A stretch of 61,176 nt of DNA from Peribacillus kribbensis DSM 17871 (GTDB lineage: Bacteria; Bacillota; Bacilli; Bacillales; DSM-1321), in the NCBI RefSeq assembly GCF_000430765.1, contig NZ_KE387238.1, positions 357,185 to 418,360 of the forward strand. Direction: 5' to 3'. Positions 1,974 to 51,731 of this stretch are shown here, one piece after another. The translations under genes were made by a program, and so were the position numbers. Position 1 is the first letter of the stretch. The number at the start of each line of letters is the position of its first letter. The notes under the pieces were generated by a model. That model was given only the letters and a program-made list of their open reading frames with translations, did not search any database and was not told the DNA's origin.

Positions 1974-2003
1974 AGTATACAGGTAGATATCGCTTTTTGT
2001 CCA
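1974..2003 (-). promoter_or_regulatory. Sigma-A promoter of the YdcZ-type gene
   Basis: Minus-strand -35 TGGACA (2003-1998) and -10 TATACT (1979-1974), spacer 18. The -35 overlaps a short palindrome (GTCCA-N5-TGGAC, 1999-2013) and a 20-bp ArsR-like operator candidate at 1987-2006. Confidence 0.6.
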
Positions 2004-2006
2004 TAT
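1987..2006. promoter_or_regulatory. Candidate operator, ATATG-N10-GATAT type
   Basis: On the minus strand a 20-bp element has ATATGG at one end and CGATAT at the other. It differs by one base in the outer five-base arms from the perfect ATATC-N10-GATAT elements at 51330-51349 and 51707-51726. It sits between the -35 and -10 of the gene at 1504, where repressor binding would block transcription. Its role is inferred. Confidence 0.5.
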
Positions 2007-2035
2007 TTTGGACTTATTGACAAGAATCCAGAAAA

Positions 2036-2056
2036 AAGACCCGGATCCCGGGTCTT
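2036..2056 (-). terminator. Terminator of the MetE-like gene
   Basis: A perfect 9-bp GC-rich stem (2036-2044 with 2048-2056) is followed on the minus strand by a T-rich tract. Confidence 0.85.
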
Positions 2057-2068
2057 CCATATTTTTAA

Positions 2069-3166
2069 TTATCCCCAAATATCACGGGCAATATTGATCA
2101 CATGCCTTATTTTTGCCCACTGCTGCTCTTCGGACAAAATATTCCCATCCTCTGTGGATGCAAAACCGCACTGAGGGCTTAGGCACAGCTGGCTGATATC
2201 AACATACTGACTCGCTTCTTTAATTCGTGCTTTAATTCTTTCGGGGTTTTCTAATTCACCATTTTTAGACGTAATCAAGCCAAGGACAATTCTTAGATCC
2301 TCACGATTTACATGCTTGAGCGATTCGAATCCTCCAGACCTTTCATCATCGAATTCAAGGAACAGCCCATCAACATTCAGCCTGCCAAAAATGATTTCAG
2401 AAACACTGTCGTATCCTCCGCTTGACATATAGGTGGATTTATAATTCCCTCTGCAAATATGCATGGTGATCGTCATATCCTCTGGCTTGCCTGCAATGGA
2501 TTCGTTGACAGCCCTAGCGAAGGTCAGAGCCAGCTTATCAGGATCTTCCCCTTCTTTTCTTAATTTCTCTCTTCCTTCCTCAGAAAAGAACGCTGCCCAT
2601 GAAGTATCGTCGAGCTGTAAATACCGGCATCCTGCTTCATAAAATTCTTTGATTGCTTTTTGATAAGCTGTTACCAGATCGCTTAGTAATGCTTCACGGT
2701 TTTCATAGGATTCAATGACCGCTCTAAGAAGCAGCATATTTGGGCTCGGAATGGTAAACTTGACAGTCGTATCGCCTGCAGCCTCGTGCAGGAACTTATA
2801 ATGCTCCAGCATAGGGTGGCCGGTAAAGCCTACTTTTCCTGTTACCTTGATTCCATGAGGCTTGGTTTCCACTCCTTTAAACTTCAAGCCTGTTTCCGCT
2901 TCAAACAGCTCTACGCCATCAAGGCCTGCCAAGAAATCATAATGCCACCAGGCTCTTCTGAATTCCCCATCTGTCACAGCACTGAGTCCCGCTTCCTTCT
3001 GCTTTGCAATCAGCCTGATGATTTCTTCATCTTCAATGCCGCGAAGCTCTTCTGCTGTAATTTCCCCATTCTGCTTCTTCTTCCTTGCATCCTTTAATCT
3101 TTTGGGCCTTAAAAAGCTTCCCACATGATCCGCGCGGAATGGTATCTGCGTTAACGTTTTTGTCAT
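2069..3166 (-). CDS. MetE C-terminal-like cobalamin-independent methionine synthase family protein (YxjG/YxjH type)
   Basis: A 365-residue protein matching the catalytic C-terminal half of MetE, like the YxjG/YxjH proteins of B. subtilis. It probably transfers a methyl group to homocysteine or a related thiol in sulfur amino acid metabolism. Zinc-binding residues typical of the family are visible: the His and Cys of MHICRGN and the Cys residues around LCLSPQCGFAS. The N-terminal folate-binding half of full MetE is absent, as is normal here. AAGGAGGAAATTGAA precedes the ATG. Expression is governed by the SAM-I riboswitch at 3315-3479, fitting methionine supply. The methyl donor is uncertain. 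Confidence 0.88.
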   Translation of the reverse strand: MTKTLTQIPFRADHVGSFLRPKRLKDARKKKQNGEITAEELRGIEDEEIIRLIAKQKEAGLSAVTDGEFRRAWWHYDFLAGLDGVELFEAETGLKFKGVETKPHGIKVTGKVGFTGHPMLEHYKFLHEAAGDTTVKFTIPSPNMLLLRAVIESYENREALLSDLVTAYQKAIKEFYEAGCRYLQLDDTSWAAFFSEEGREKLRKEGEDPDKLALTFARAVNESIAGKPEDMTITMHICRGNYKSTYMSSGGYDSVSEIIFGRLNVDGLFLEFDDERSGGFESLKHVNREDLRIVLGLITSKNGELENPERIKARIKEASQYVDISQLCLSPQCGFASTEDGNILSEEQQWAKIRHVINIARDIWG

Positions 3167-3314
3167 TTCAATTTCCTCCTTGAAGATGCTGATTTCTAAA
3201 AAAGTGGTCGATTTTCAAACGTGTATAGCGGCTGAAAACTAAATTTGAAACAACCTCTATGTCACTTGCCATACACCTTACCAAAAACAGACTTTTAAAA
3301 AGCCGCAAGGACGT

Positions 3315-3479
3315 AAAAAACGCTCCTCCTTATAAAAGGAAGAGCGTTATCGCACAATACGGCCAATGATCCCTTCCTTATCTTCCAGAGTAAATTCTGC
3401 AGGATTTAGCACCAGCTGTTATAAATAACAGGGGTTGCCGGGTTTCATAGGGCCAGTCCCTCCACCGCTCATGATAAGG
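3315..3479 (-). promoter_or_regulatory. SAM-I (S-box) riboswitch with terminator
   Basis: Minus-strand aptamer of about 104 nt (3479-3376). It starts CCTTATCATGAG, carries GGTGGAGGGA, ACTGGCCC, GAAACCCGGCAACC and the GGTGCTAAATCC core, and closes P1 with GATAAGG. It is followed by a long hairpin (3319-3348, AACGCTC with GAGCGTT arms) and six U (3320-3315). High S-adenosylmethionine should stop transcription before the MetE-like gene at 2069. A TATAAT lies at 3485-3490 just upstream. Confidence 0.95.
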
Positions 3480-3570
3480 TTTTTATTATAGTAAGAATAT
3501 TCATAAATCATATAACATTATGACGGAAAAGTAAATAGTCTATTTTAAATGAATGAAGTAATAAAACAAT

Positions 3571-3684
3571 AAAAAGGCACCTGACGTATCAGGTGCCCGC
3601 GTATTGAGGCGAATGACAACACTCCACATTGCGCTTGCCATTTAAGGCATGTCATTCGGCTTACACAATTCAGCTCATCGCTTT
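3571..3684 (-). ncRNA. Candidate small structured RNA between ohr and the SAM-I leader
   Basis: On the minus strand, right after the ohr stop, there is a promoter (-35 TTGTAT, 17-base spacer, -10 TATATT, about 3716-3688). A segment of about 110 nt without an open frame follows. It has long-range arms GCCGAATGACA and TGTCATTCGCC (3610-3660), an inner GCC/GGC stem, and ends in a perfect 9-bp terminator (3576-3597) with five U. The segment is separate from both neighbouring genes. I do not recognise the family; the sRNA call is an inference from promoter, fold and terminator together. Confidence 0.5.
3576..3597 (-). terminator. Terminator of ohr or of the candidate sRNA
   Basis: Stem GGCACCTGA/TCAGGTGCC with loop CGTA, followed on the minus strand by TTTTTATTG. 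Confidence 0.85.
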
Positions 3685-3719
3685 ATTAATATAACATGAT
3701 AAAAAGAATTATACAAGCT

Positions 3720-4145
3720 TTATTTTTCGGCGTTCACTTGAAGTTCCACATCAATATTTCCTCTTGTAGCCTTGGAGTACGGACACATTTGATGCGCCTT
3801 TTCAGCAAGGCTCTGTGCTTCCTCCTTAGAAACTCCATCAATATCCACATTTAATACTACTGCCAGTTTAAAGCCATTATCACTTTCATCTTTAAGCAGG
3901 CTGACATCAGCGGTAACAACCGGATCGACGTTCAGCTTTTCCTTCTTTGCGATAAGGGCCAATGCAGAATTATAGCACGCTGAATACCCTGCAGCGAAAA
4001 GTGCCTCGGGATTTGTCCCATTCCCGCCTTCCCCATTCAAAGCTTTGGGATTGGCAAGCTGGAAATCAATGACCCCGTCATCCGAACGGACAGTACCAGC
4101 TCGTCCTCCTCTTGATGTAGCAGATGCAGTAAACAATACTCCCAT
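3720..4145 (-). CDS. ohr: Organic hydroperoxide resistance protein (Ohr/OsmC family)
   Basis: A 141-residue thiol peroxidase that reduces organic hydroperoxides in the cytosol. The two catalytic cysteines stand in GYSACYNSAL and MCPYSKATRGN, and the conserved Arg in the N-terminal RGGRAGTV segment is present. Length fits Ohr proteins (about 140). GGGAGG lies 8 bases before the ATG. No OhrR repressor gene is adjacent, so regulation is unclear. Confidence 0.92.
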   Translation of the reverse strand: MGVLFTASATSRGGRAGTVRSDDGVIDFQLANPKALNGEGGNGTNPEALFAAGYSACYNSALALIAKKEKLNVDPVVTADVSLLKDESDNGFKLAVVLNVDIDGVSKEEAQSLAEKAHQMCPYSKATRGNIDVELQVNAEK

Positions 4146-4253
4146 TAGTAAAACCTCCCTTGGATTGAATACTCTTGTATTTTTCCCGAGTATACACGCT
4201 TCAAACCTATTAAGAACACTGCACTTAAAGTTTACATAATATATTTATTGTCT

Positions 4254-4290
4254 AAAAAAAGAAGCTGTCTCCATGCAGTGAGACAGCTTC
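4254..4290 (-). terminator. Terminator of the host ppiB remnant
   Basis: A perfect 10-bp stem GAAGCTGTCT/AGACAGCTTC followed on the minus strand by seven U. Confidence 0.85.
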
Positions 4291-4301
4291 CCTAGTAATG
4301 A

Positions 4302-4571
4302 TTATTCTTCTACGATTTTTACTTCCTTCATTTTGTCACCCTGCTGGATGTCATCCACATACTCCATTCCTTCAACTACCTTACCGAATACAGTATGCAC
4401 ACCGTTTAGATGCGGCTGCGGCTCATAAACGATGAAGAATTGGGATCCGCCAGTATCTTTTCCTGCATGAGCCATGGGAAGTGAGCAGCGTTCATACTTA
4501 TGGGGATTTCCTGCTGTTTCACATTTGATCGTATATCCAGGGCCGCCAGTGCCTGTTGGAACGGGAGTCAT
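4302..4571 (-). pseudogene. ppiB: Truncated host ppiB (3' part of peptidyl-prolyl isomerase B)
   Basis: Encodes only the last 85 or so residues of a cyclophilin, from about [10 protein letters not shown] onward, including [17 protein letters not shown]. The first 55-60 residues, with the HRVIPGF catalytic Arg region, are missing. Base composition is like the chromosome. The break falls exactly where a serine recombinase remnant ends, so the gene was probably cut by insertion of a mobile element. The ATG at 4571 comes from the junction and is unlikely to give a folded enzyme. A complete but compositionally foreign copy lies at 5035. Residues at ERCSLP also differ from the usual HEAGSLS, suggesting decay. 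Confidence 0.85.
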
Positions 4572-4580
4572 TTACCCTCC
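4562..4580. other. Probable attachment-site junction in ppiB
   Basis: The change from AT-rich recombinase tail to host ppiB happens at the overlapping TGA/ATG near 4571-4577; host homology resumes with the codons for Pro-Thr-Gly-Thr-Gly. This marks the likely crossover of the former element. The opposite half of the host gene is not seen in the window. Confidence 0.5.
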
Positions 4581-4960
4581 CCTAAATTATTTACATCCTC
4601 AACAGTACCAATCTCATTCAATAAAGCATTTTGAATTGCTATCTTAAATTTAAGTACAATCCTTTTTTTAGTAACAGCTACTTCTCTAGCACCTGTCCTA
4701 GCATAGCTTTCTTTTCATCTAAGCTAACAGAGTTTTTAAAAGTATCTACCCATTTATCTAGCTGTACCTTTAACTTTTCTAAATCATCTGACTCTACCTG
4801 AGTCTTTTCAATCTCATCTTTTAATGAATTAAGTTGAGAAGAAAGCTCTTCTTTTTTAGCCTTATACTCATCTATTTTACTTTGTACAAAGTCTAAGCCA
4901 TTTAGTGACCTCTCCCTTGTCCAATTGTCACTACTCCCATTAGATAATTATTTTCAAGTG
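4575..4960 (-). pseudogene. C-terminal remnant of a large serine recombinase (phage-type integrase)
   Basis: On the minus strand two frames together give the tail of a large serine integrase. A coiled-coil-rich stretch (NWTRERSLNGLDFVQ, later KAMLGQVLEK then a stop) is followed one frame over by the usual C-terminal beta segment (REVAVTKKRIVLKFK) and a TGA at 4577-4575. The catalytic N-terminal domain is gone and a frameshift lies near 4690-4700. The stop codon abuts the ppiB junction, as expected when the integrase gene ends next to the attachment site. Very AT-rich. Family assignment rests on coiled-coil pattern and position. Confidence 0.6.
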
Positions 4961-4984
4961 TGACAGACTGAGCCAAAAAGACAT

Positions 4985-5013
4985 AAAAAAAGAGCAGGTG
5001 CTTTTGCACCTAC
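4985..5013 (-). terminator. Terminator of the second ppiB
   Basis: Stem GTAGGTGC/GCACCTGC with an AAAA loop (minus strand), followed by seven U. Confidence 0.8.
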
Positions 5014-5034
5014 CCTAGTTAATTCCTACTATAA

Positions 5035-5475
5035 TTACTCTGCATCAAATACTTTTACTTCTTGCATCTTATCCCCATTTTTCATGTTAAGAGCTGTCTC
5101 TAGACCAGATGTAACTTTACCAAAGACTGTATGTACTCCATTAAGGTGAGGCTGTGGCTCATGTACAATAAAGAATTGACTTCCACCTGTATCTTTTCCT
5201 GCATGAGCCATAGACAAGCTGCCTGCCTCATGTTTATGAGGATTTCCAACTGTCTCACATTTAATTGTGTACCCTGGACCACCTGCTCCTGTTCCTGTGG
5301 GATCTCCACCCTGACTTACAAATCCAGGAATTACTCTATGGAATGTAACTCCATCATAAAAGCCCTCATTAGCTAATTTTTCAAAGTTAGCTACTGTTTT
5401 AGGAGCTTCATTAGGGTAAAATTCAAGCTCCATTTTTTCTCCATTTTCCATTACTATATATCCTTTTTTAGCCAT
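5035..5475 (-). CDS. ppiB: Peptidyl-prolyl cis-trans isomerase B (cyclophilin), foreign-looking copy
   Basis: A complete 146-residue cytosolic cyclophilin that catalyses isomerisation of Xaa-Pro bonds. [17 protein letters not shown] and [17 protein letters not shown] carry the active-site Arg, Phe and Gln residues. AAGGAGATG lies 7 bases before the ATG. Codon use is markedly more A/T-rich than the surrounding genes along its whole length, not just in one half. It therefore seems to have arrived with the mobile element and now stands in for the interrupted host gene at 4302. Flanking sequence is phage-like debris. Confidence 0.93.
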
Positions 5476-5556
5476 GATAACATCTCCTTTAGTAAGTAAA
5501 AATCAATTATAATAATAACATTATATGATACCAAAAGGAAATACAGAGCTTATGCC

Positions 5557-5726
5557 CTACCTGATCTTATCTACTATCTGCTTTAATAGCTTTAATACCT
5601 CAGCATCATTACTTTCTATCTTGCCTATCTTATTGCCAATTTCCCCTCTAAACTCTGACATATCTTTATGTAGCTTCTGTATTGCCTCTAGGATGTCCTG
5701 TACCTTTTTCCAATGTCTTTCTCCAT
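5557..5726 (-). pseudogene. Phage-like small coiled-coil protein, frameshifted
   Basis: After an ATG at 5726 with AGGAGGTTAGATAAC upstream, the frame breaks after about 12 codons. A second frame continues (KKVQDILEAIQKLHKDMSEF, ending KQIVDKIR and TAG at 5559-5557). A 2-base insertion near the start would explain it. The helical, heptad-like pattern resembles small phage membrane or lysis accessory proteins, but no family is claimed. It is AT-rich like its neighbours and belongs to the element remnant. Confidence 0.4.
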
Positions 5727-5770
5727 GTTATCTAACCTCCTGACCTGCTCCTGATGCTTTTAATTATAAC

Positions 5771-5796
5771 AAAAAAAGCAGAACCTAAGCCCTGCT
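5771..5796 (-). terminator. Terminator in the element remnant
   Basis: Minus strand stem AGCAGGG/TTCTGCT (with G-U pairs) followed by seven U. The flanking stretch from 5797 to the acetyltransferase stop at 5889 is AT-rich and holds no convincing gene; a short open stretch starting MDSGKRIIIEEF may be debris. Confidence 0.6.
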
Positions 5797-5888
5797 TAAC
5801 TCTATTAGCTTTTTCAGAAGATGACTGACTTTTATTTCTTAGTGATTCATCAATTAAAATAAACTCTTCAATTATGATTCTTTTTCCA

Positions 5889-6434
5889 CTATCCATCTAA
5901 ATCCTTTGCAAGAAGTGCATACAGATAGTGATCCTTCCATTCACCATTGATAAGCAGATTCTCTCTCATCAATCCTTCCCTTCTAAAGCCGTTTTTCTCA
6001 AGTACCCGCATAGAGCGGGGGTTCTCTGGTGAAACACCTGCTTCCATCCTTCTCAATTTCAAGGTCTGAAAGGCAAAGGTAATCATTAAATCGAGCGCCT
6101 CACTTGCAAAGCCTTTGCCTGTAAGGTCTGTATCAATGGAATAACCTGTTGATGCCGATTGGAAGAATCCCATTTTCACATCGTAAAGACTTATATCACC
6201 GATCAGGCCGCCATTGTCATTTAGGAAAATTCCAAAATTATAAGCTCGCCCTTTTTTAAATAATTCCTTGTCTTCACGGATGGCCTTTCTCTGGTTTTCA
6301 ATCGTATAATACTCCTTGCTCCTTGAAGGTTCAAAAGCCTGCCAGACATGGCGGTTCCGTATCAATAAATCTGTATATGCGGCTGCATCCGATTCTTCCA
6401 TTTGTTTTAAAACAATTCGATTTCCTGTAAGCAT
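5889..6434 (-). CDS. GNAT family N-acetyltransferase, RimJ/RimL-like
   Basis: A 181-residue acetyl-CoA-dependent N-acetyltransferase resembling the RimJ/RimL/YdaF group. The acetyl-CoA binding region is around DLTGKGFASEAL, and the C-terminal NPRSMRVLEKNGFRREG is typical of protein-N-terminal or amino-sugar acetyltransferases. Of two ATGs, the one at 6434 is chosen because AGGAGA lies 7 bases upstream; the one at 6440 is too close. The stop codon is the last host sequence before the AT-rich mobile remnant. The acceptor substrate is unknown. Confidence 0.85.
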   Translation of the reverse strand: MLTGNRIVLKQMEESDAAAYTDLLIRNRHVWQAFEPSRSKEYYTIENQRKAIREDKELFKKGRAYNFGIFLNDNGGLIGDISLYDVKMGFFQSASTGYSIDTDLTGKGFASEALDLMITFAFQTLKLRRMEAGVSPENPRSMRVLEKNGFRREGLMRENLLINGEWKDHYLYALLAKDLDG

Positions 6435-6456
6435 GGTCATTCTCCTGTAAGGTTAT

Positions 6457-7239
6457 TTAAGCGTGATCAATTAAGCTGGTCAAGAGCTCCTTTTTAAGAT
6501 CCAGGATAAACTGCAGGCTTTGTTTACAGCTGTCGACAGGGCTTTGTTCAAACTGCTCCTGTTCAATGATATACCAATCGATTTCCTGCTCCATTCCAGC
6601 CGTAATCAGGCTTTTAATATCGATCGTGCCTGTCCCAAGTTCTGTGCTTCTCTTCTCTCCGTCCCCGATTTTCATATCTTTTAGATGCAGGGAGATGAAC
6701 CGACCGGGATGTTCCCTCATCAACGCAATCGGATCCACACCAGCATAAACAGCCCAGTAACTATCAAGCTCGAATTTCACGTTTTCAGGAGAAGTATGCT
6801 TCAAGAGAATATCAAGCCCTGTTCCTTCCCCGTATCGCTGAAACTCAAAATCATGGTTATGGTAAGCGAACATAAACCCATTTTCCCTGCATTTCTGTCC
6901 TATCTCATTAAGTAGCGAAGCAGTTTCCTTATAAGCCACTGCGGTCTTCCTTTTTTGTTCAGGAAGCCAGGGAAGGACGATCAACTTATTTCCTATCCCC
7001 CTATTATAATCAAGAACTTCCTCCAGCTTTTGTATCAGTTCCTCAAGCGGGGTGTGGCTTCCGGCAGGTTTAAGACCTGTTTCCTGCAGCAGTTCTTTTA
7101 AACACAGAGAAGAGGCCTGGTAAAACCCAGCAAATTCAACTCCCGGATACCCCATTTGAGCCAGCTTCCTTAATGTCCCTTCAAAATCCTTTTCTGTCTC
7201 TTCTTTTACTGTCCACAGCTGGAGCCCAATATTGAACAT
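6457..7239 (-). CDS. Sugar phosphate isomerase/epimerase (xylose isomerase-like TIM barrel)
   Basis: A 260-residue protein of the AP-endonuclease-2/IolE-IolI TIM-barrel family that usually isomerises or epimerises sugars and inositol derivatives with a divalent metal. Candidate metal ligands are the Glu of VKFELDSYW, the His of SLHLKDMKIG, the Glu of IIEQEQF and the His of AYHNHDFEF. The strong site GAGGAGGAAGAGAG precedes the ATG. It is followed after 22 bases by the acetyltransferase, so the two may be one transcript. No inositol genes are nearby; the substrate is unknown. Confidence 0.82.
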   Translation of the reverse strand: MFNIGLQLWTVKEETEKDFEGTLRKLAQMGYPGVEFAGFYQASSLCLKELLQETGLKPAGSHTPLEELIQKLEEVLDYNRGIGNKLIVLPWLPEQKRKTAVAYKETASLLNEIGQKCRENGFMFAYHNHDFEFQRYGEGTGLDILLKHTSPENVKFELDSYWAVYAGVDPIALMREHPGRFISLHLKDMKIGDGEKRSTELGTGTIDIKSLITAGMEQEIDWYIIEQEQFEQSPVDSCKQSLQFILDLKKELLTSLIDHA

Positions 7240-7576
7240 CTCTCTTCCTCCTCTGAGATTTTCTGATATGAAATAAATTGGCTATTCATCGTAAAAATCC
7301 CTTTAAAAACGGAAAAAAGAAGCAAGGAGGTGTCCAATAAGTCCCTGAAATAAGCAGGAGGAGAAAACAAAAAGTTTTCTCCTCCTGCTTTTGTTTTGTT
7401 CGACTGATTTCATCATCTGCGGATTTATCAGCCCGGGATCAGCACATACAAGGGAGCTGGCACTGTTTACCCCATCTGACACTTCTGCCTGTCAAGAAGA
7501 TCACTTGCATGTATAAGAAGGGTGTCCAGCACGTCGGTTTACCCCACTTTCCGGACAGCCCCTTCAAAGGAGAACC
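7240..7576. other. Intergenic stretch with an orphan hairpin
   Basis: 337 bases without a gene. It holds a perfect 17-bp inverted repeat (7352-7368 with 7374-7390) followed on the plus strand by TTGTTTTGTT, and two look-alike segments (GGTGTCCAATAAGTCC near 7329 and GGGTGTCCAGCACGTC near 7524). No plus-strand gene precedes the hairpin, so it may be left over from a lost gene or element. Confidence 0.5.
7352..7390 (+). terminator. Terminator-like 17-bp hairpin without an obvious gene
   Basis: Arms AAGCAGGAGGAGAAAAC and GTTTTCTCCTCCTGCTT around AAAAA. The T-rich tail is on the plus strand only, yet both adjacent genes are on the minus strand. Confidence 0.6.
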
Positions 7577-9058
7577 TTATTTAACGGTGAGTTTTTCAAA
7601 AACCGGAGCCTTCCGGACAGGCGCCGCCTGTTCATAGGAATACGAGATTTCGATCAGCTGCTGCTCGCTATACGCGGTTCCTGTAAAGGTAATCCCAACA
7701 GGCTCCCCTTCCTCCGTATAGCCCGCCGGCACCGTGATGGAAGGATAGCCGGCTTTAGCCGGGATGCCTGCTCCGATGTTATTAGGAAAAACAATGGCAT
7801 CAAGCCCATGCTGTTCAAGCGCAGCATCAATTCCCTTTTCGGTGGATAAGAAGTAATCCTTTTCAAGAGCATCTAAATAATCGGCTTCTGTAAGGCTCCC
7901 GCTTGTTTTTTCTGCTTCAATCAGCAGCGTCTGGCCGTATTTCAGCCTATTTTCCGGGTCTGTCTCGTTGAACGCGATCACATCTGCCAGTGATTGAACA
8001 CTGCCTGTGAGCCTGCTTAGGTAGGCATTCAAATCCGCCTTAAATTCGTAGGTGAGTACATCATAGCTCCAGTCCTCTTTGCTCGAGGGAATCTCCACTT
8101 GATCTATGATCACTGCTCCCTGCTGTTTAAGCACCTCTATAGCAGAGTCAAGGATGTGCTGTTTTTCTTCACTGAGATAATCAAAATAAACCTCTCTCGC
8201 AATCCCGATTCTTTTCCCTTGAAGTCCATCTTTCTTTAAGGAGGCCGTAAAATCGACAGATGCTAAACGATTGGCACCTGTCGCAGGGTCAGCAGGGTCC
8301 TGCCCCCTGAGAGCATTTAGAAGAATCACAGCATCTCCTACCGTTCTGGCCATGGGACCTGCCGTATCCTGGGTATGTGCGATAGGTATGATGCCGGTCC
8401 TGCCGATGAGGCCGACGGTTGGCTTGATTCCCACCAGAGAATTCTGGCTGGCCGGACTCAAAATCGAGCCGGATGTTTCTGTTCCCACAGAAGCAGCCGC
8501 CAGGCTTGCAGCAATAGAAGCTCCGGAGCCTGAACTGGAACCGCCCACATCAAATTTTCCGGGACCATAAGGATTCAGTACCTGTCCCCCCCTTGAGCTA
8601 TAGCCGCTCGGCATATTGTCTGTCATAAAATTGGCCCATTCCGTCATATTCGTTTTACCCAGGATGATCGCCCCTGCTTCCCGAAGACTGGCAGCCACAA
8701 AAGAATCAGATGGAGCAAACGAATTTGCAAGCGCAAGCGATCCAGCGCTTGTATGCAGCTTGTCTCCTGTATCTATATTATCTTTAATCAATAAGGGAAT
8801 TCCGTGCAGCGGCCCCCTCGCACCCTTTGTTTTTCTTTCGGCGTCAAGGGCATCCGCGATCTGCAGGGCATCTGGGTTGATTTCAAGGACAGAATTAATG
8901 CTTGGCCCCTTTTTATCCAGTTCACTTATTCTCTTTAAATAAAGAAGTGTAAGCTCTCTTGCTGACAGCTCTCCTTGATCCATTTTAAACTGCATGTCTT
9001 CAATTGATGCATCCTGCAGCCACTCTTTATATAGCACTGCTAGTTTTTCATTATTCAT
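7577..9058 (-). CDS. Amidase (amidase signature family)
   Basis: A 493-residue amidase that hydrolyses C-N amide bonds through a Ser-cisSer-Lys triad. The Lys is in LLIKDNIDTG, the cis-Ser in GGSSSGSGAS and the nucleophilic Ser in GTETSGSI. It resembles GatA, but no gatC or gatB is adjacent and it is closer to stand-alone amidases. The ATG at 9058 has AAGGAG 8 bases upstream. No signal peptide was seen, so it is likely cytosolic. Substrate unknown. Confidence 0.9.
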   Translation of the reverse strand: MNNEKLAVLYKEWLQDASIEDMQFKMDQGELSARELTLLYLKRISELDKKGPSINSVLEINPDALQIADALDAERKTKGARGPLHGIPLLIKDNIDTGDKLHTSAGSLALANSFAPSDSFVAASLREAGAIILGKTNMTEWANFMTDNMPSGYSSRGGQVLNPYGPGKFDVGGSSSGSGASIAASLAAASVGTETSGSILSPASQNSLVGIKPTVGLIGRTGIIPIAHTQDTAGPMARTVGDAVILLNALRGQDPADPATGANRLASVDFTASLKKDGLQGKRIGIAREVYFDYLSEEKQHILDSAIEVLKQQGAVIIDQVEIPSSKEDWSYDVLTYEFKADLNAYLSRLTGSVQSLADVIAFNETDPENRLKYGQTLLIEAEKTSGSLTEADYLDALEKDYFLSTEKGIDAALEQHGLDAIVFPNNIGAGIPAKAGYPSITVPAGYTEEGEPVGITFTGTAYSEQQLIEISYSYEQAAPVRKAPVFEKLTVK

Positions 9059-9189: not shown

Positions 9190-9195
9190 TCCTGA

Positions 9196-43700: not shown

Positions 43701-43708
43701 CTTCTTCG

Positions 43709-45138: not shown

Positions 45139-45144
45139 ACAAAT

Positions 45145-45179
45145 AGGAGTCTATCATTCAATTTAGATGATAGACTCCT
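45145..45179. terminator. Bidirectional terminator between the MBL gene and the acyl-CoA ligase gene
   Basis: 13-bp arms AGGAGTCTATCAT / ATGATAGACTCCT, T-rich on either side. Confidence 0.75.
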
Positions 45180-45187
45180 TATTACGA

Positions 45188-46744
45188 TCAGCGGTTGACT
45201 GGATTAGTTTCTTTTCTAAGCTGGTACTTCAAGATCTTCCCGCTTGCATTCCTCGGAAGGGCATCCATAAATATATACCTTCTAGGCCTCTTGTAGTTCG
45301 CTAATTTATTGCTTTCCCTGCAGAACACATCTAAGTCCTCTTCCGTCAACCCTGGATCTTTTTTTACTATGATGGCGGTTACCGATTCTCCCCAGCGGTC
45401 ATTCGGTTCCCCGATTACTGCGGCCTCCAGAACGCCTTCATGCTCATATAAAAGATCCTCTACTTCCCTGGGATAAATATTTTCCCCGCCGCTGATAATC
45501 ATGTCATCCACCCGGTCCTTGACGTAAAGGTATCCTTCATCATCTAAATATCCTATATCCCCGGAATGATACCATCCTTTATATAAGGCTTTTTCCGTAA
45601 GGGATTCTTTTCTGTAATATCCCTTCATGATACAAGGGCCTTTAACGATGATTTCTCCTGGCTCAAAGGCACTCAGAATCTCATCTGGATCTGATGGGCT
45701 GTCTTCCCTTCCCCTTACAATTCGTATTTCGTGATTAAGGGCCGCCTGGCCGGCAGATCCTGCTTTTGTCAGCTGGTCTTCATTCCCAAGAAAGGTGATT
45801 GCCGGTCCCATTTCCGTCATTCCATAGGCCTGGACAAGCTCAGCCCCAATTTTTTCCCGGCAGGAGCGCACAAGGGCAGGAGGCATCGGAGCTGCACCAT
45901 ACAGGCTGATCCTAAGTGAGGAAACATCATATGTGTTCAAATCCTCCTGCAGGATCATATTCCACATAGCCGGGGCCGCAAAAAAAGTGGTGATCTTTTC
46001 CCTCTCGATTAATTCGAGCACCTGCCCTGGATGGAACTGATGAAGGACCACATTACTGGCCCCTGCATGGACCCTTGGCAGAAAGGCGCAATGCAGCTCT
46101 GCACAGTGGAACATCGGTGCCGTAATCAGCCCCTTATCTTTTTCGTCCAGCTTTGTTGCAGCTATGCACAAGAGGCTTTGTTCAGCCATGTCACGATGGG
46201 TGTGCATGACACCTTTTGGACGTCCGGTTGTTCCGCTGGTATACATGATGGAATATAAATCATTTTCATCCACATCAACCTGAATCGGTTCTGGATGATA
46301 GACTTTTATTCTAGTTGAATAGCTTTCTGCAAAAGCAGAGGGATCTTCGTCAATATAAATAAAGGCAGTATGGGGAAATCGGTGCCTGATATCCTTTATG
46401 GCAGCGCTGGTTTCTTTTTCAAAAAATACTAGCTTTGGCTCTGCATCATGAATAATATACGCAATTTCTTCAGCAGTCAGGCGGAAGTTCATTGGATTGA
46501 ATACGGCACCAACTTTTGCGGAAGCAAAATACACGGAAGCCAGCTCGCCCCTATTCATTAAAAAGGTGGAAATACGATCGCCTTTCTGGATTCCAGAGGC
46601 AAGAAAGGAATGGGCCAGAGAGTTTACTTCTTCCGCCCACCCTCCGTAAGTCTGCCTCTTCCCTGTTTTCACATCATAAAGAGCTTCTTTATTTGGGTAT
46701 TTCCTTACAGTCAAATCAAAGATCTGTCCTATGGTTAATCCCAT
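45188..46744 (-). CDS. Acyl-CoA synthetase (AMP-forming fatty acid-CoA ligase)
   Basis: A 518-residue ANL-superfamily enzyme activating a carboxylic acid as acyl-AMP and then acyl-CoA. The P-loop-like YTSGTTGRPKG, the core QAYGMTEMGP, YHSGDIGY and the Lys of ASGKILKY are all intact. GAGGAGGAAAAACC precedes the ATG. Last gene of the fatty acid degradation unit beginning at 49939. Chain length is not predictable from sequence; the fold is of the medium/long-chain FadD-like type. Confidence 0.92.
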   Translation of the reverse strand: MGLTIGQIFDLTVRKYPNKEALYDVKTGKRQTYGGWAEEVNSLAHSFLASGIQKGDRISTFLMNRGELASVYFASAKVGAVFNPMNFRLTAEEIAYIIHDAEPKLVFFEKETSAAIKDIRHRFPHTAFIYIDEDPSAFAESYSTRIKVYHPEPIQVDVDENDLYSIMYTSGTTGRPKGVMHTHRDMAEQSLLCIAATKLDEKDKGLITAPMFHCAELHCAFLPRVHAGASNVVLHQFHPGQVLELIEREKITTFFAAPAMWNMILQEDLNTYDVSSLRISLYGAAPMPPALVRSCREKIGAELVQAYGMTEMGPAITFLGNEDQLTKAGSAGQAALNHEIRIVRGREDSPSDPDEILSAFEPGEIIVKGPCIMKGYYRKESLTEKALYKGWYHSGDIGYLDDEGYLYVKDRVDDMIISGGENIYPREVEDLLYEHEGVLEAAVIGEPNDRWGESVTAIIVKKDPGLTEEDLDVFCRESNKLANYKRPRRYIFMDALPRNASGKILKYQLRKETNPVNR

Positions 46745-46818
46745 GGTTTTTCCTCCTCAATAATCAAATTTTGAAGCTTCATTATGGTGACACTCTAGAC
46801 GGCTTTGCTTAAAAGGAC

Positions 46819-47970
46819 CTAGTCTAACCGTTCCAGGATGGTAGCATTCGCCATGCCATGGCCTTCACACATGGTCTGGAGTCCATATCTTGACTTTGTT
46901 CTTTCTAATTCATGAACAAGGGAAACCATTATTCTTGCTCCGCTTGCTCCCAGAGGATGACCGAGGGCGATGGCCCCGCCGTTTGGATTCAGCCTGCGTG
47001 GATCGGCATCTAATTCCTCCAGCCAGGCAAGCGGGACAGACGCGAAAGCCTCATTTACTTCATAAATATCAATGTCCCTAAGAGTTAGACCGGACTTTTC
47101 CAGTGCTTTTTGGGTCGCTGCGATCGGCCCTGTAAGCATCAGCTCCGGATCTGAACCGACAACCACCCTTGTATGAATTTTACATTTAGGCTTTAACCCA
47201 AGCTGTTTGGCCCTTTCAGCAGACATGATCAGGAGGCAGGCGGCACCGTCACTTATTTGAGAGGAATTGCCGGCTGTTATCACCCCATCCTCTGTAAAAA
47301 CAGGCTTTAAATTTGCCAGGCCTTCAAGGGAGCTGTCCTTCCGCGGGCCGGAGTCTTCTTTGATCAGGACAGGCTGTCCCTCTTCCGTTTCAGCCTCAAC
47401 CGCAAAAGTTTCCCTGTTAAAATAACCGTTTTCCCAGGCATGCAGTGCCTTTTCATGGCTGTGGAGAGAATAAATATCAAGCTCTTCGCGGGAGAAGGTA
47501 TATTTATCAGCGATTCTTTCAGCAGAGATTCCCTGATGGACGACATCGTATTTTTCACGATATAAGCTGGAAGGCTTCACGCCTTTATAGTTCGATCCTA
47601 TCGGGATCCTGGACATACTCTCTACTCCTCCGGCAATGACCACATCCATATCACCGCTGATAATGGCCTGGGCTGCAAAATGGACAGCCTGCTGACTGGA
47701 ACCGCACTGCCTGTCTATCGTTGTTCCCGGGACTTCAATCGGCAGACCAGCAATCAGGGCAGCCACCCGTGCAATATCTCCTGCCTGCTCGCCTATCTGA
47801 GAGACACAGCCCACTATCACATCCTCAATTTGGGAAGCCTCGATTTCTGTTCTCTTGACCAGCTCCTTGATGGTCATAGCCAGCAATTCGTCCGCCCTGA
47901 TATTTTTCAGATCACCATTCTTTTTTCCTACAGGCGTTCTTACTCCTTCAATGATGACAGCTTCCCTCAT
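46819..47970 (-). CDS. Acetyl-CoA acyltransferase (thiolase)
   Basis: A 383-residue thiolase that cleaves 3-ketoacyl-CoA with CoA. The nucleophilic Cys is in DRQCGSSQQA, the His in GGAIALGHPLGASG, and the second Cys in MCEGHGMANA; NEAFA is conserved. The ATG at 47970 has GGAGGGG 6 bases away; the open frame starts slightly earlier. Same operon as the dehydrogenase upstream (15 bases apart). Confidence 0.93.
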   Translation of the reverse strand: MREAVIIEGVRTPVGKKNGDLKNIRADELLAMTIKELVKRTEIEASQIEDVIVGCVSQIGEQAGDIARVAALIAGLPIEVPGTTIDRQCGSSQQAVHFAAQAIISGDMDVVIAGGVESMSRIPIGSNYKGVKPSSLYREKYDVVHQGISAERIADKYTFSREELDIYSLHSHEKALHAWENGYFNRETFAVEAETEEGQPVLIKEDSGPRKDSSLEGLANLKPVFTEDGVITAGNSSQISDGAACLLIMSAERAKQLGLKPKCKIHTRVVVGSDPELMLTGPIAATQKALEKSGLTLRDIDIYEVNEAFASVPLAWLEELDADPRRLNPNGGAIALGHPLGASGARIMVSLVHELERTKSRYGLQTMCEGHGMANATILERLD

Positions 47971-47985
47971 TGGTTTCCCCTCCAT

Positions 47986-49131
47986 TTAGAGATTCATTTT
48001 TTTAGCTATGATCAGTTTCATGATTTCATTCGTCCCGGCATAAATGCTTGCCACCGGGATATCCCTGTAGCGCCTGGCAATCTCATATTCCTCCATATAA
48101 CCATAGCCTCCATGAAGCTGCATGCACTGAGCAGCAATCTGCTTAGCCATTTCTGTGATTTTCCATTTGGCCATGGAAACCCTTGCCGTAATGTCTTTTC
48201 CTTCCATATGTTCGAAGATAACCGCATCAAGAAAAGCTCTTCCCATTTCGATGTCAGTTGCCATTTCTGCCAGCTTAAACTGTGTGTTTTGAAAAGAGCT
48301 GATGGATCTGCCGAATGCCTTCCGGGATTTAACATAATCCAGGGTAATCCTCAGCATTTCCTCAGATGCCGTCTGGGCAGATATTGCTACGATCAGCCTT
48401 TCCTGCTGAAGCTTTTGCATTAAATAGTGAAATCCTCTGCCTTCCCGTCCTATTAAATTTCCCTCAGGAACTAAACAATCTTCAAATATCAATTCCGCCG
48501 TATCCTGACAGTGCATCCCGAGCTTCTGGAGCTTTCTGCCCCTGCTAAAGCCCGGCGTCCCCCGTTCCACTGCTATTAAGCTGATCCCTTCATGCCCCTT
48601 TTCACCGGCTGGACCTGTCCTGCAGGCGACAATCACCAGATCGGCATGGATGCCGTTTGTAATAAACGTTTTCTGCCCATTCAAGACATAATGTCCATCC
48701 TGCTTTTTCGCATAAGTCTTTATCCCGGCAAGATCAGAGCCGGTTCCTGGTTCTGTCATCGCTATGGCCGTGATCCTACTCCCTTCAATACATCCCGGAA
48801 GCCATCTTCTTTTCTGCTCCTCCGTGCCAAATGCTGTTATATAAGGAACGGCTATGTCATTATGAAGGCCGATGCCGACCAGACCGGAGCCCACCCTCTC
48901 CAGTTCTTCATTTAATACGACAGAATATCCCCAGTCAGCTCCTGACCCTCCATATTCTTCAGATACATCTGGACATAAAAAACCTTCCCTGCCAAGCTTT
49001 TCCCAAAATTCTCTCGGGATGATTCCGTCTTCTTCCCATTTTTCATAATGGGGATACGCCTCTTTTTCTAAGAACCGCCGGAAGGCCTTCCTAAAGATTT
49101 GGTGATCTTCTCCTAAATAATGTCTGGCCAT
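47986..49131 (-). CDS. Acyl-CoA dehydrogenase
   Basis: A 381-residue FAD flavoenzyme making the trans-2,3 double bond in acyl-CoA. FAD/substrate motifs ITAIAMTEPGTGSDLAG and GQKTFITNG are present. The usual C-terminal catalytic Glu position reads YAGTNEIM, as in long-chain types, which carry the base elsewhere (ASEEMLR region). The ATG at 49131 follows GGAGGG. Third-order neighbours form a beta-oxidation set; no enoyl-CoA hydratase is in the unit. Confidence 0.92.
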   Translation of the reverse strand: MARHYLGEDHQIFRKAFRRFLEKEAYPHYEKWEEDGIIPREFWEKLGREGFLCPDVSEEYGGSGADWGYSVVLNEELERVGSGLVGIGLHNDIAVPYITAFGTEEQKRRWLPGCIEGSRITAIAMTEPGTGSDLAGIKTYAKKQDGHYVLNGQKTFITNGIHADLVIVACRTGPAGEKGHEGISLIAVERGTPGFSRGRKLQKLGMHCQDTAELIFEDCLVPEGNLIGREGRGFHYLMQKLQQERLIVAISAQTASEEMLRITLDYVKSRKAFGRSISSFQNTQFKLAEMATDIEMGRAFLDAVIFEHMEGKDITARVSMAKWKITEMAKQIAAQCMQLHGGYGYMEEYEIARRYRDIPVASIYAGTNEIMKLIIAKKMNL

Positions 49132-49171
49132 GTCACCCTCCAGTTTTTTAAACATTCTGATAATTAAACTC

Positions 49172-49939
49172 CTATTTCGGCTGCATCCGAACCGCCCCAT
49201 CCAGCCTGATGGTTTCTCCGTTCAGCATGTGATTTTCCGCAATCATCTCAACCAGACCTGCAAATTCCTCCGGCCTTCCCATTCTTTTCGGAAAAGGCAC
49301 TGCTTTTCCAAGAGCGTCTCTTGCTGGCTCAGGAAGCGCCTCAAACATTGGGGTCTCAAATAAACCGGGTGCAATCGCCATAACCCTGATTCCCACTGAA
49401 GCCAGCTCCCTGGCTAGTGGTAGGGTCATAGATACAATGCCGCCCTTTGAAGCACTGTATGCTGCCTGGCCGATTTGGCCTTCAAATGCGGCGATGGAAG
49501 CAGTATTGACGAACAGCCCTCTCTCTCCTTCAGCATCAGGGGTATTTCGGGCCATTCCCTCAGCCGCCAGACGGACCACATTGAAGGTCCCAATTAAATT
49601 AATTTCAATCACTTTTGAGAACGTCTCTAGGTCATGGATGCCATTTTTACCAAGCACCTTTTTCCCCGCTGCGATACCGGCACAATTTACGGCAAGATTC
49701 AATCGGCCCCATTTATCCATCATAGCTCCGATGGCAGCCCTTACTTGCCTTTCATCCCTTACATCCGCCTGTATATAAAGAGCTCCGTCTCCCAGCTCCT
49801 CCTTCAAAGCCTCGCCTTTCCCCCGGGCAGCATCCAGAATGGCTGCCCTTCCTCCTTTGTCCACAATCCTTCTTACCACAGCTTCCCCGAGACCCGATGC
49901 CCCACCTGTTACAAGGGCAATAGTTTCTGCAAATTTCAC
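49172..49939 (-). CDS. SDR-family dehydrogenase, 3-hydroxyacyl-CoA type
   Basis: A 255-residue short-chain dehydrogenase resembling HSD17B10-type 3-hydroxyacyl-CoA dehydrogenases. Cofactor motif TGGASGLGE and Asp of VALD-like LDAARG point to NAD; the Ser-Tyr-Lys triad is NTASIAA / YSASKGG. The chosen GTG at 49939 follows GGAGGGGGG and gives the exact family length. First gene of the operon; supplies 3-ketoacyl-CoA to the thiolase. Confidence 0.88.
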   Translation of the reverse strand: MKFAETIALVTGGASGLGEAVVRRIVDKGGRAAILDAARGKGEALKEELGDGALYIQADVRDERQVRAAIGAMMDKWGRLNLAVNCAGIAAGKKVLGKNGIHDLETFSKVIEINLIGTFNVVRLAAEGMARNTPDAEGERGLFVNTASIAAFEGQIGQAAYSASKGGIVSMTLPLARELASVGIRVMAIAPGLFETPMFEALPEPARDALGKAVPFPKRMGRPEEFAGLVEMIAENHMLNGETIRLDGAVRMQPK

Positions 49940-50007
49940 GCGATCCCCCCTCCAAATTTTTCTATTTTTCCCCTCCATCTATGAAGCAATAAAATATGTA
50001 ATTCAAT

Positions 50008-50036
50008 ATTATCAAAATAAGTGTTCTTTAAGTCAA
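50008..50036 (-). promoter_or_regulatory. Promoter of the fatty acid degradation operon
   Basis: Minus strand -35 TTGACT (50036-50031), spacer 17, -10 GATAAT (50013-50008). No obvious FadR-type palindrome was seen next to it. Confidence 0.6.
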
Positions 50037-50039
50037 TAA

Positions 50040-50374
50040 AAAAGTAAGCGCATTCAAAATTAACTGCTGGGAATAAAGTGGGGACCACTTTCATACATTA
50101 ACTTACATTTATATATCTTACTTGTAGTAATTCTTTTAGAATTCCTCATATCCCTTTAAACGGAATAATTTTTTTCACAAAGCTAGACAGGGGCTGATGA
50201 ATCATGTCAGATTCATCAAAATGATTTTGCTGTCTAGGAACAGACAAGGGTCGTTCCGGAATACAGGGAGCGTCCAGACAGCCTTTTACTGGACCGGAGG
50301 CTTGTCTCCATAGGGGGTAAAGATCTCAATTAAAACCGAAATATGGATTCCTATTTCAAAAAAGCAATAAATCT
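50040..50374. other. Folded intergenic region with nested inverted repeats
   Basis: About 330 bases without a gene. Two neighbouring structures: outer stem CTAGACAG/CTGTCTAG (50183-50190 with 50230-50237) around inner stem TGATGAATC/GATTCATCA, and outer stem AGACAAG-GGTC with GACC-CTTGTCT (50242-50252 with 50292-50307). The string AGACA recurs in both. No T-tract follows, so these are not simple terminators. A repeat element or structured RNA is possible. Confidence 0.45.
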
Positions 50375-50406
50375 AAACCGCTGCCCCAAATAAGGTGCAG
50401 CGGTTT
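50375..50406 (-). terminator. Terminator of the tandem YdcZ genes
   Basis: 10-bp stem AAACCGCTGC/GCAGCGGTTT, two bases after the stop of the second gene. Confidence 0.75.
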
Positions 50407-50408
50407 TA

Positions 50409-50858
50409 TCAGTTTGCCCGTTTATTTCCTTTATAAATAAAATAAAGAGCAAGAATCATAAATACGAGTGCAATGGCTCGTTTCGTATCAAAGGGAATTT
50501 CTAAGCTGCCGAACCAGCCGAAATGGTCAATAATCATCCCAATGACAAGCTGGCCGATGATACCTGAAATAGTGGTGGCAATGACACCAATACGCGGAAC
50601 GGCCACAACTGTAAACAGTAAATAGATGGTTCCCAAAAATGCAGCGCTTAATTGCCATTTCGGCGCTTTAAATATGTCAAGGATATCTCCGTGGCCAAAA
50701 AATAAGATTGAGATTGTAAGAAACAGCAGTCCAGTGACAAAGGTTAAAAGCGTCGTTTCAATCGTCCCTGCCCTTCGGCTGAACGAACCATTGATTGAGG
50801 ATTGCGCGCTTAAGGTGATCCCGCCTAAAAAGGTAAATAAAATCATGATGACACTCAT
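50409..50858 (-). CDS. YdcZ/DUF606-family DMT transporter, second of a pair
   Basis: A 149-residue protein with four predicted membrane helices. GGITLSAQSSINGSFSRR and QLVIGMIIDHFGWFGSLEIP match the family. It begins 11 bases after the first YdcZ gene stops, so the pair is co-transcribed and may form a heterodimer, as small DMT pairs often do. Paralogue of the proteins at 1504 and 50870. Substrate unknown. Confidence 0.85.
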   Translation of the reverse strand: MSVIMILFTFLGGITLSAQSSINGSFSRRAGTIETTLLTFVTGLLFLTISILFFGHGDILDIFKAPKWQLSAAFLGTIYLLFTVVAVPRIGVIATTISGIIGQLVIGMIIDHFGWFGSLEIPFDTKRAIALVFMILALYFIYKGNKRAN

Positions 50859-50869
50859 GCTTTTTCCTC

Positions 50870-51298
50870 CTAACTAATGAAAATCAGTGCAATAATCATG
50901 GAAATAACCGCTAAAATATTTTCTTTATTCACTTTTGTTTTCTTACTGCCCAGCCAGCCATAATGTTCTATAACCATGCTCATGACCAGCTGGCCAATAA
51001 TAACGGCAACCATCGTTATGCCAACCCCAACAAATGGCACACTTATGACGATGGAAGTTAAATATACAACTCCTAAGACCCCGCCAAGCAGTGACCATTT
51101 GGGCGCTTCCAGTGTATAGGACAGTTTTCCTTTCCCAAAGAACAGCCATAATAAAATCATAATGATTGAACCCATAAAGAAGTTATAGAAGCTGGTTTCA
51201 AGCTGTCCTATTGTTTTTCCCAGCTCCCCATAGATCGCTCCTTCAAAGCTAAGGGCTGAACCTGCCAATAACGCCAATAGATAAGCAAGATATCGCAA
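50870..51298 (-). CDS. YdcZ/DUF606-family DMT transporter, first of a pair
   Basis: A 142-residue protein with four predicted membrane helices; ALSFEGAIYGELGKTIGQ and QLVMSMVIEHYGWLGSK are the family marks. Start is TTG with AAGGAG 8 bases upstream. A perfect ATATC-N10-GATAT palindrome lies 32 bases before it, the same as in the promoter of the ArsR gene immediately upstream, suggesting control by that regulator. Confidence 0.85.
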   Translation of the reverse strand: MRYLAYLLALLAGSALSFEGAIYGELGKTIGQLETSFYNFFMGSIIMILLWLFFGKGKLSYTLEAPKWSLLGGVLGVVYLTSIVISVPFVGVGITMVAVIIGQLVMSMVIEHYGWLGSKKTKVNKENILAVISMIIALIFIS

Positions 51299-51329
51299 AG
51301 AAATCTCTCCTTCATATATTTATAATTAG

Positions 51330-51349
51330 ATATCTAGAAAAGTAGATAT
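51330..51349. promoter_or_regulatory. Candidate ArsR operator before the YdcZ pair
   Basis: ATATCTACTTTTCTAGATAT on the minus strand: 7-bp arms ATATCTA/TAGATAT. Fits ATATC-N10-GATAT, shared with the arsR promoter. Confidence 0.6.
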
Positions 51350-51356
51350 TTTATCA

Positions 51357-51393
51357 AACAAAAAAACAGAAATCATGCGTTTAGATTTCTGTT
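51357..51393 (-). terminator. Terminator of arsR, overlapping its 3' end
   Basis: 10-bp stem AACAGAAATC/GATTTCTGTT followed on the minus strand by seven T. The stop codon lies within the loop, so the 5' arm is coding. Confidence 0.8.
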
Positions 51394-51695
51394 TTAAAAT
51401 AATCCGCTATCTGCTGAATAGCTTCTTCATTCCTCCTGTAATAAGTCCATTGACCATAACGGACAGATTCAAGAAGGCCTGCGCTCTGCATCATGCTCAA
51501 GTAGTGAGAGACCGTGGATTGGGAAGCCTTTGCTTTTTCCTGGATATCTCCTACACAGACTCCGCCTTTGATGCTTACCTCCTTCGGAAGGTGTGCGCCT
51601 TGTTTAGGAAAGTGCTTCTCTGGCTCCTTCAGCCACTGTAAAATATTCAGTCTGGTTTCGTTTGATAACGCCTTGAATATATCGATTGGTTTCAT
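51381..51695 (-). CDS. ArsR-family transcriptional regulator
   Basis: A 104-residue winged helix-turn-helix repressor: FKALSNETRLNILQWL at the start, recognition helix KASQSTVSHYLSMMQSAGLL, then the wing. One Cys (GGVCVGD) is present, but the paired Cys metal site of ArsR or CadC is absent, so the signal is unknown. The ATG at 51695 has no good ribosome binding site and sits at the expected transcription start, so the message may be leaderless. Probably controls itself and the YdcZ pair downstream. Confidence 0.85.
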   Translation of the reverse strand: MKPIDIFKALSNETRLNILQWLKEPEKHFPKQGAHLPKEVSIKGGVCVGDIQEKAKASQSTVSHYLSMMQSAGLLESVRYGQWTYYRRNEEAIQQIADYFKTEI

Positions 51696-51701
51696 GGCCC
51701 T

Positions 51702-51731
51702 ATTATATATCGGTTTTTTTCGATATGTCAA
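51702..51731 (-). promoter_or_regulatory. arsR promoter with built-in palindromic operator
   Basis: Minus strand -35 TTGACA (51731-51726), spacer 18, -10 TATAAT (51707-51702). The spacer holds ATATCG-N8-CGATAT (51707-51726), a typical autorepression layout. Confidence 0.75.

What the first reader, a model, noticed from the sequence alone, without database searches (positions are those of the whole stretch)
1987..51726. Shared 20-bp palindrome links an ArsR regulator to three YdcZ-family genes at two distant loci
ATATC-N10-GATAT occurs perfectly in the arsR promoter (51707-51726) and before the adjacent YdcZ pair (51330-51349), and with one mismatch in the promoter of the YdcZ paralogue at 1504 (1987-2006). 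The three genes are the only YdcZ-type genes in the window. This suggests an undescribed small regulon where an ArsR-type repressor without the usual metal Cys pairs controls small membrane exporters.
Basis: partly seen in the sequence, partly recalled or inferred. Interest (0 to 1): 0.72.

Follow-up and report, generated by a model that had tools for sequence, protein, structure and literature searches.

The report
Self-repressing regulator of paired membrane exporters
A small DNA-binding regulator, common in Bacillus-like bacteria, appears to control itself and a neighbouring pair of membrane exporters through two matching DNA switches; the claimed third switch, far away in front of a related exporter gene, is not conserved and remains unproven.

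Summary
The two local palindromes are real and look functional; the distant one is doubtful. Among 115 distinct relatives of the regulator, a palindrome with at most one mismatch lies upstream of arsR in 91 and just after arsR in 109; shuffles give 0.8% and 1.4%. The first fills the 18-bp spacer of a TTGACA/TATAAT promoter; the second lies between an arsR terminator-like hairpin and a ydcZ pair. 96 of 115 loci have ydcZ next; 14 have an MFS transporter instead, both palindromes kept, so the palindrome belongs to the regulator, not to YdcZ genes. The distal site (1987-2006) has one mismatch and a weak matrix score (12.0); sites of its class are at chance level in the genome (59 against 59 control); none of nine other genomes with the regulator and an unlinked single ydcZ gene has it. 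But it overlaps the likely -35 box of its gene, and such a score in that one gap is improbable (about 5e-4), so species-specific recruitment stays possible. Verdict: a conserved local repressor-exporter cassette, not a three-gene dispersed regulon.

The parts
51381..51695 (-). arsR: ArsR-type repressor, 104 aa, single Cys (C47) in a G-G-V-C-V-G-D motif
   Evidence: translation; PF01022 37.6 bits over cut-off 22; NCBIfam HTH_metalloreg 72.2 over 55
51726..51731 (-). -35 hexamer TTGACA of the arsR promoter
   Evidence: 12 of 12 consensus matches with an 18-nt spacer (shuffles give 1.4 promoter-like hits of 9 or more of 12 per region)
51702..51707 (-). -10 hexamer TATAAT of the arsR promoter
51707..51726 (.). 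operator A, ATATCGGTTTTTTTCGATAT, filling the spacer of the arsR promoter
   Evidence: counterpart with at most 1 mismatch in 91 of 115 distinct arsR loci
51363..51395 (-). terminator-like hairpin AAAACAGAAATC-N9-GATTTCTGTTTT followed by T, with the arsR stop codon in its loop
   Evidence: read by eye; the scanner does not list it (loop limit 8); a hairpin plus T-run near the arsR stop in 98 of 115 loci by a simple rule without a shuffle control
51330..51349 (.). operator B, ATATCTAGAAAAGTAGATAT, between arsR and the ydcZ pair
   Evidence: counterpart with at most 1 mismatch within 150 bp of the arsR stop in 109 of 115 loci
50870..51298 (-). ydcZ1 (TTG start), YdcZ-type exporter subunit, charge bias +7 (N-in favoured)
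   Evidence: PF04657 120.4 bits; bias
50409..50858 (-). ydcZ2, YdcZ-type exporter subunit, charge bias -2 (N-out favoured)
   Evidence: PF04657 107.3 bits; bias
1504..1938 (-). distant single YdcZ paralogue, small charge bias (+1); membership of the regulon not supported
   Evidence: PF04657 129.4 bits; bias
1987..2006 (.). imperfect palindrome proposed as third operator; overlaps the -35-like hexamer TGGACA (2003-1998) of the promoter-like site of the 1504 gene
   Evidence: 1 mismatch; score 12.0; promoter-like site, 10 of 12; shuffles give 0.5 per region; not conserved

Best explanation
arsR-ydcZ1-ydcZ2 is a self-contained repressor-exporter cassette. SHOWN in sequence: two copies of one palindrome (consensus about ATATCGA-N6-TCGATAT) are conserved, one inside the arsR promoter spacer and one between the arsR terminator-like hairpin and ydcZ1; the ydcZ pair has opposite charge biases. 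INFERRED: a dimer of the ArsR-type protein binds both palindromes, blocking RNA polymerase at its own promoter and transcription of the exporter pair. A small organic ligand or reactive compound (unknown; perhaps sensed at the one invariant Cys) releases it. YdcZ1 and YdcZ2 then insert in opposite orientations as an antiparallel heterodimer and export the inducer. The gene at 1504 is most likely outside this circuit.
For: Both palindromes in 6 of 6 same-family loci with a close ArsR (78% identity or more; 11 of 12 copies exact, one with one mismatch). Site A with at most 1 mismatch in 91 of 115, starting 30-32 bp before the start codon in 79 of those 91; site B in 109 of 115; local shuffles 0.8% and 1.4%. 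86 of 91 A sites overlap a TTGA[CT]A box and 80 of 91 have a TATAAT-like box after them; own promoter 12 of 12. ydcZ on the same strand in 96 of 115. In 22 regulator-bearing genomes the strict motif occurs 64 times against 18 control, and 39 of the 64 are at this locus (my count from the list). Charge bias ydcZ1 +7.1 (sd 0.9, n=91), ydcZ2 -3.3 (sd 1.3, n=91), single P0004 type +1.6 (sd 0.9, n=31). Partner swap to MFS in 14 of 115 loci, all 14 with both palindromes at one mismatch or fewer.
Against: No binding, expression or transport data exist here. Site B has no evident -35 box for a separate ydcZ promoter (consensus; no promoter-like hit there), so how B acts is unclear; it could be a roadblock to read-through. 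24 of 115 loci lack a site A within one mismatch, among them 9 ydcZ-bearing loci with 3-4 mismatches. Export and ligand are assumed from the family name; the substrate of YdcZ proteins is not known from these calls.
Confidence: 0.77

Rival explanations
1. One reading: the regulator also represses the distant YdcZ gene through 1987-2006, so all three exporter genes form one dispersed regulon, gained recently in this species.
For: The site overlaps the only promoter-like hit of that gene (TGGACA-18-TATACT). In the window it ranks fourth by matrix score, after the two local operators and the site that overlaps one of them. Of 73 YdcZ upstreams scored, its own included, it is the only one at 12 or more; the next is 3.9. 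A score this high in that gap has P about 5e-4 in an intergenic model.
Against: Score below the 1st percentile of the operators used, although above their minimum of 11.3. About 10.6 such scores are expected per genome by chance, and 59 one-mismatch sites equal the control. No site with at most one mismatch in the promoters of the unlinked single ydcZ genes of 9 of 9 other regulator-bearing genomes examined (G005, G006, G027, G040, G203, G321, G331, G332, G407). The one mismatch falls in the -35-like box.
Confidence: 0.22
2. The 1987-2006 site is used by the paralogous ArsR-type regulator of the same genome (G000 contig C17), which may recognise a closely similar palindrome.
For: The paralogue (53% identity) has the one-mismatch site ATATCGCAAATTATCAATAT (L254:2327) about 93 bp before its first start codon (L254:2420); the distal site shares ATATCGC with it. 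13 of 24 paralogues scored carry a site of 12 or more within 110 bp upstream.
Against: The same lack of conservation at unlinked ydcZ promoters. The own paralogue's site lies outside the 110-bp range scored (best score there -14.7). It heads a luciferase-like monooxygenase gene, not an exporter, in this genome.
Confidence: 0.08
3. The palindromes are chance features of AT-rich promoter DNA.
For: One-mismatch sites are common: 59 in the genome, equal to control; the exact core occurs 18 times against 8 control.
Against: Position and conservation of A and B across 115 loci against 0.8% and 1.4% in shuffles. This rival fits only the third site.
Confidence: 0.03
4. The regulator is a classical metal sensor and the exporters handle metal or metalloid.
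For: NCBIfam HTH_metalloreg is over its cut-off; sequence matches in the PDB are Lmo1102, CzrA and HlyU entries; nearest fold matches include ArsR As(III) sensors, SmtB and CzrA.
Against: Exactly one Cys in 107 of 107 rows, C-x-G in place of C-x-C, and no His in the last 30 residues of 59 of 107 rows. The fold matches also include NolR, HlyU and SqrR, which are not metal sensors (recalled). The exporters are DMT or MFS types, not ArsB, CDF or P-type pumps.
Confidence: 0.06

Closest known systems
ArsR/SmtB family autorepressors with a downstream efflux gene (ArsR, CzrA, CadC, SmtB; operon facts recalled)
   Same: Winged-helix fold (model mean pLDDT 83.8; best PDB match ArsR 6j05), palindrome overlapping its own promoter, exporter genes next to it
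   Different: No metal-site residues; two separate palindromes, one for arsR and one before the exporter genes; exporter is a YdcZ pair or an MFS protein
Non-metal ArsR-family regulators (NolR, HlyU, SqrR, BigR; roles recalled)
   Same: Fold neighbours NolR 4omy, HlyU 4ooi and SqrR 6o8k; no metal site
   Different: One invariant Cys rather than a Cys pair (pair recalled for SqrR/BigR); BigR model score 24.9 against cut-off 155
SdpR family autorepressors (NF033789)
   Same: Second-best NCBIfam match; small autorepressor (from the model's name)
   Different: 51.1 bits against a cut-off of 100, so not a member by that model
DUF606/YdcZ paired genes (Lolkema et al. 2008, seen only as cited in PMC3962082, passages)
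   Same: Adjacent homologous genes with opposite charge bias; the passages describe homodimers, heterodimers and fusions in this family
   Different: No regulator is mentioned in the passages that I read

Membership tests
ArsR/SmtB winged-helix family | profile match over curated cut-off | tested here: met
   PF01022 37.6 over 22; NF033788 72.2 over 55
ArsR/SmtB winged-helix family | winged-helix fold | tested here: met
   AlphaFold2 model, pLDDT 83.8, pTM 0.76; 22 PDB matches at E<=0.001, led by ArsR, NolR, an E. coli regulator, SmtB and HlyU; TM-scores moderate, 0.43-0.61 by query length among these
ArsR/SmtB winged-helix family | dimer that binds an operator in its own promoter | tested here: inconclusive
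   Palindrome conserved in the promoter spacer; binding not testable here
Metal-sensing ArsR/SmtB regulators | alpha3 Cys-x-Cys or alpha5 Asp/His metal ligands (motifs recalled) | tested here: not met
   One Cys only, C-x-G, 107 of 107; no His in the last 30 residues of 59 of 107
SdpR family (NF033789) | score over model cut-off | tested here: not met
   51.1 against 100
DMT_YdcZ (PF04657) | profile match over cut-off | tested here: met
   120.4, 107.3 and 129.4 bits against 24
Antiparallel YdcZ heterodimers | adjacent genes with opposite K+R bias | tested here: met
   +7.1 and -3.3 mean bias, n=91 each; loop limits set by eye on the own sequences
Antiparallel YdcZ heterodimers | export of a substrate by the pair | not testable with these tools
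   No transport data

The most novel reading that the evidence does not exclude
A clade of one-cysteine ArsR-type repressors that share the ATATC-N10-GATAT operator acts as an exchangeable control unit in Bacillales: the regulator and its two operators stay, while the controlled detoxification gene is swapped (paired YdcZ exporters, MFS exporters, flavin-dependent luciferase-like monooxygenases). The invariant Cys senses a reactive organic compound, and in this species the unit has begun to recruit a distant third exporter gene.
Probability: 0.2. Interest if true: 0.6.

Novelty: new member of a known kind. Interest (0 to 1): 0.42.

Why it matters
It gives a testable operator and an exchange of partners for a widespread ArsR subgroup, and a handle on what YdcZ (DUF606) exporter pairs do: the inducer of the regulator should be their substrate. 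Nine literature searches listed no paper that by title, abstract start or the passages I read describes this regulator-YdcZ pairing; the library holds open-licence papers only, and one search listed 10 of 3,718.

Tried and rejected
Genome-wide regulon by the loose core (18 exact sites): the surroundings of the 16 other sites were not analysed, since the stricter form leaves only one besides the two local sites. Metal-sensor reading: rejected on residues. ATATCGA in ArsR papers: in the passages of PMC12093948 that I saw the string occurs only in primers; PMC5480029, PMC6016940 and PMC3534079 were seen as passages and say nothing there on this pairing. The regions L276-L279 were fetched but not analysed. 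The regulator tree has few columns and weak forks; I use it only for the count of partner changes (MFS label: 4 changes, shuffled mean 10.6).

Limits of the counts: the 133 loci are 6 family loci, 80 genome-contig loci (the best 80 of 227 found, so biased to close relatives), 27 loci from the order search and 20 regions fetched; of the 53 regulator-bearing genomes, three (G286, G330, G356) were not fetched. 18 loci with identical arsR DNA were dropped before counting. One site B (L024, exact) lies beyond the 150-bp limit and counts as a miss. The shuffles keep base composition only. The 73 upstreams include downstream members of gene pairs, the own gene, and one gene twice (G027: L067 and L190), and mix genomes with and without the regulator. 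The paralogue table has 26 rows for 24 genes (two genes listed twice). One search used 22 of the 56 genomes given. Operator scores were not left-one-out. Alignment rows were limited by length.
Full report
OBSERVATION. With one mismatch allowed the window has four sites against 2.85 expected, so the count alone says little. In the whole genome the exact core occurs 18 times against 8 for the reversed pattern, and the tighter form with one mismatch 59 times against 59. The three YdcZ genes are the only PF04657 matches of the genome.

LOCAL CASSETTE. A regulator of 78-87% identity occurs in five other genomes of the 43 searched in the family (own included in the 43). In all six, own included, arsR is followed on the same strand by two ydcZ genes, and both palindromes are present (11 of 12 exact, the other with one mismatch). 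In genome contigs the best 80 of 227 relatives come from many Bacillales genera. Of 133 loci taken together, 115 have distinct arsR DNA. Site A, in the 80 bp before arsR, has at most one mismatch in 91 (76 exact); site B, within 150 bp after the arsR stop, in 109 (88 exact). Shuffling the same stretches gives 0.8% and 1.4%. Consensus A is ATATCGAAAAAACTCGATAT and B ATATCGATTTTTCTAGATAT. Against this: 24 of 115 lack site A within one mismatch, 9 of them with 3-4 mismatches, all 9 with ydcZ.

ANATOMY. The own arsR promoter matches TTGACA-18-TATAAT in 12 of 12 positions, and site A fills the spacer, sharing one base with each hexamer. 86 of 91 A sites overlap a TTGA[CT]A box, and 80 of 91 have a TATAAT-like box after them. 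A hairpin with a T-run at the arsR stop is found in 98 of 115 loci by a simple rule without control; in the window its loop holds the stop codon (read). Site B comes after it and before ydcZ1. No promoter-like hit covers B, so whether ydcZ has its own promoter there, or B blocks read-through, is open.

THE EXPORTERS. Lysine plus arginine bias between odd and even loops is +7.1 for ydcZ1 and -3.3 for ydcZ2 (91 rows each) and +1.6 for the single type to which the 1504 gene belongs (31 rows, 90% slightly positive) (loop limits set by eye). This fits an antiparallel heterodimer for the pair and, less clearly, a dual-topology protein for the single gene; homodimers, heterodimers and fusions in the DUF606 family are described in passages of PMC3962082. 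The single gene thus looks like a different subtype, which weakens the case for co-regulation by kinship.

PARTNER EXCHANGE. 19 of the 115 loci lack an adjacent ydcZ; they keep site A (at most one mismatch) in 18 and site B in 17. In 14 the next gene is an MFS transporter, and all 14 have both sites at one mismatch or fewer (one search list). The two examined match PF07690 and resemble Cmx/AraJ types below the model cut-offs. The MFS label needs four changes on a weakly resolved tree, shuffled mean 10.6. So the palindrome follows the regulator, not YdcZ. Of 24 paralogous regulators scored (48-62% identity), 13 have a site of 12 or more within 110 bp upstream. Those read head MFS-like, luciferase-like monooxygenase, oxidoreductase or aldo-keto reductase-like genes (named by eye; Pfam for one monooxygenase, PF00296). 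In G027 a paralogue is followed by a monooxygenase-like gene, a SnoaL-like gene and a ydcZ pair, though that paralogue has no palindrome within 110 bp. This hints at detoxification of small organic compounds; it is inference.

THE DISTAL SITE. It scores 12.0 on the matrix, against 25.8 and 23.6 for the local sites; the operators used have a 1st percentile of 15.2 and a minimum of 11.3. About 10.6 such scores are expected per genome. Among 73 upstreams of YdcZ open frames, own included, it is the only one at 12 or more; the next is 3.9. In nine other genomes that have the regulator and an unlinked single ydcZ gene, none has a site with at most one mismatch in that promoter (four of them also). 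I give it about one chance in five.

REGULON SIZE. In 22 regulator-bearing genomes the strict form ATATCK-N8-MGATAT occurs 64 times against 18 control; 39 of the 64 are at the arsR locus and one (G006 C45) is before a paralogue (assignment by my reading of its list). The remaining 24 are close to the control number, so no second widespread target is apparent, though their genes were not examined.

THE REGULATOR. ArsR fold; one Cys, C47, in 107 of 107 rows, followed by V-G where metal sensors have x-Cys (motif of metal sensors recalled). It passes the general ArsR models, not SdpR or BigR. The own regulator is 92-93% identical to Domibacillus and B. inaquosorum records but 83-87% to its own genus, which suggests transfer between genera; the tree places it with B. 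inaquosorum with weak support.

VERDICT. A conserved repressor-exporter cassette, ordinary in kind and not described in the papers that my searches listed; the dispersed three-gene regulon is not supported.

Noticed in passing
L061-L071 and L078, about 95 bp before the ydcZ gene: Single-ydcZ promoters of 12 genomes of the neighbouring genus, 11 of them without this regulator (only G027 has it), share ATATCASTAAAGGACAATAT or a close variant, a low-scoring relative of the palindrome (matrix score at most 1.4); perhaps the site of another regulator.
   Followed up: partly
L240-L253: A second kind of YdcZ pair whose members lie about 0.7 kb apart, with room for a gene between; of these 14 regions only L244 has a one-mismatch palindrome (score 3.9, 186 bp upstream of one member).
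   Followed up: no
L187-L189: Open frames of 317-345 aa that hold two YdcZ domains, i.e. fused pairs, in three genomes (G055, G419, G261) whose regulator has an MFS or other neighbour.
   Followed up: no
L254 (own genome, contig C17): Paralogous arsR followed by a luciferase-like monooxygenase gene and two more such genes by eye, with a one-mismatch palindrome upstream.
   Followed up: partly
51314-51333 and, e.g., L083, L084, L086, L088, L092, L095 16 bp after site B: A one-mismatch palindrome overlapping site B at a 16-bp offset recurs in several loci; possibly a side effect of the GATATC overlap.
   Followed up: no
L093: A record labelled Chryseobacterium (Bacteroidota) carries the Bacillales cassette near a contig start; probably a mislabelled or mixed assembly.
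   Followed up: no
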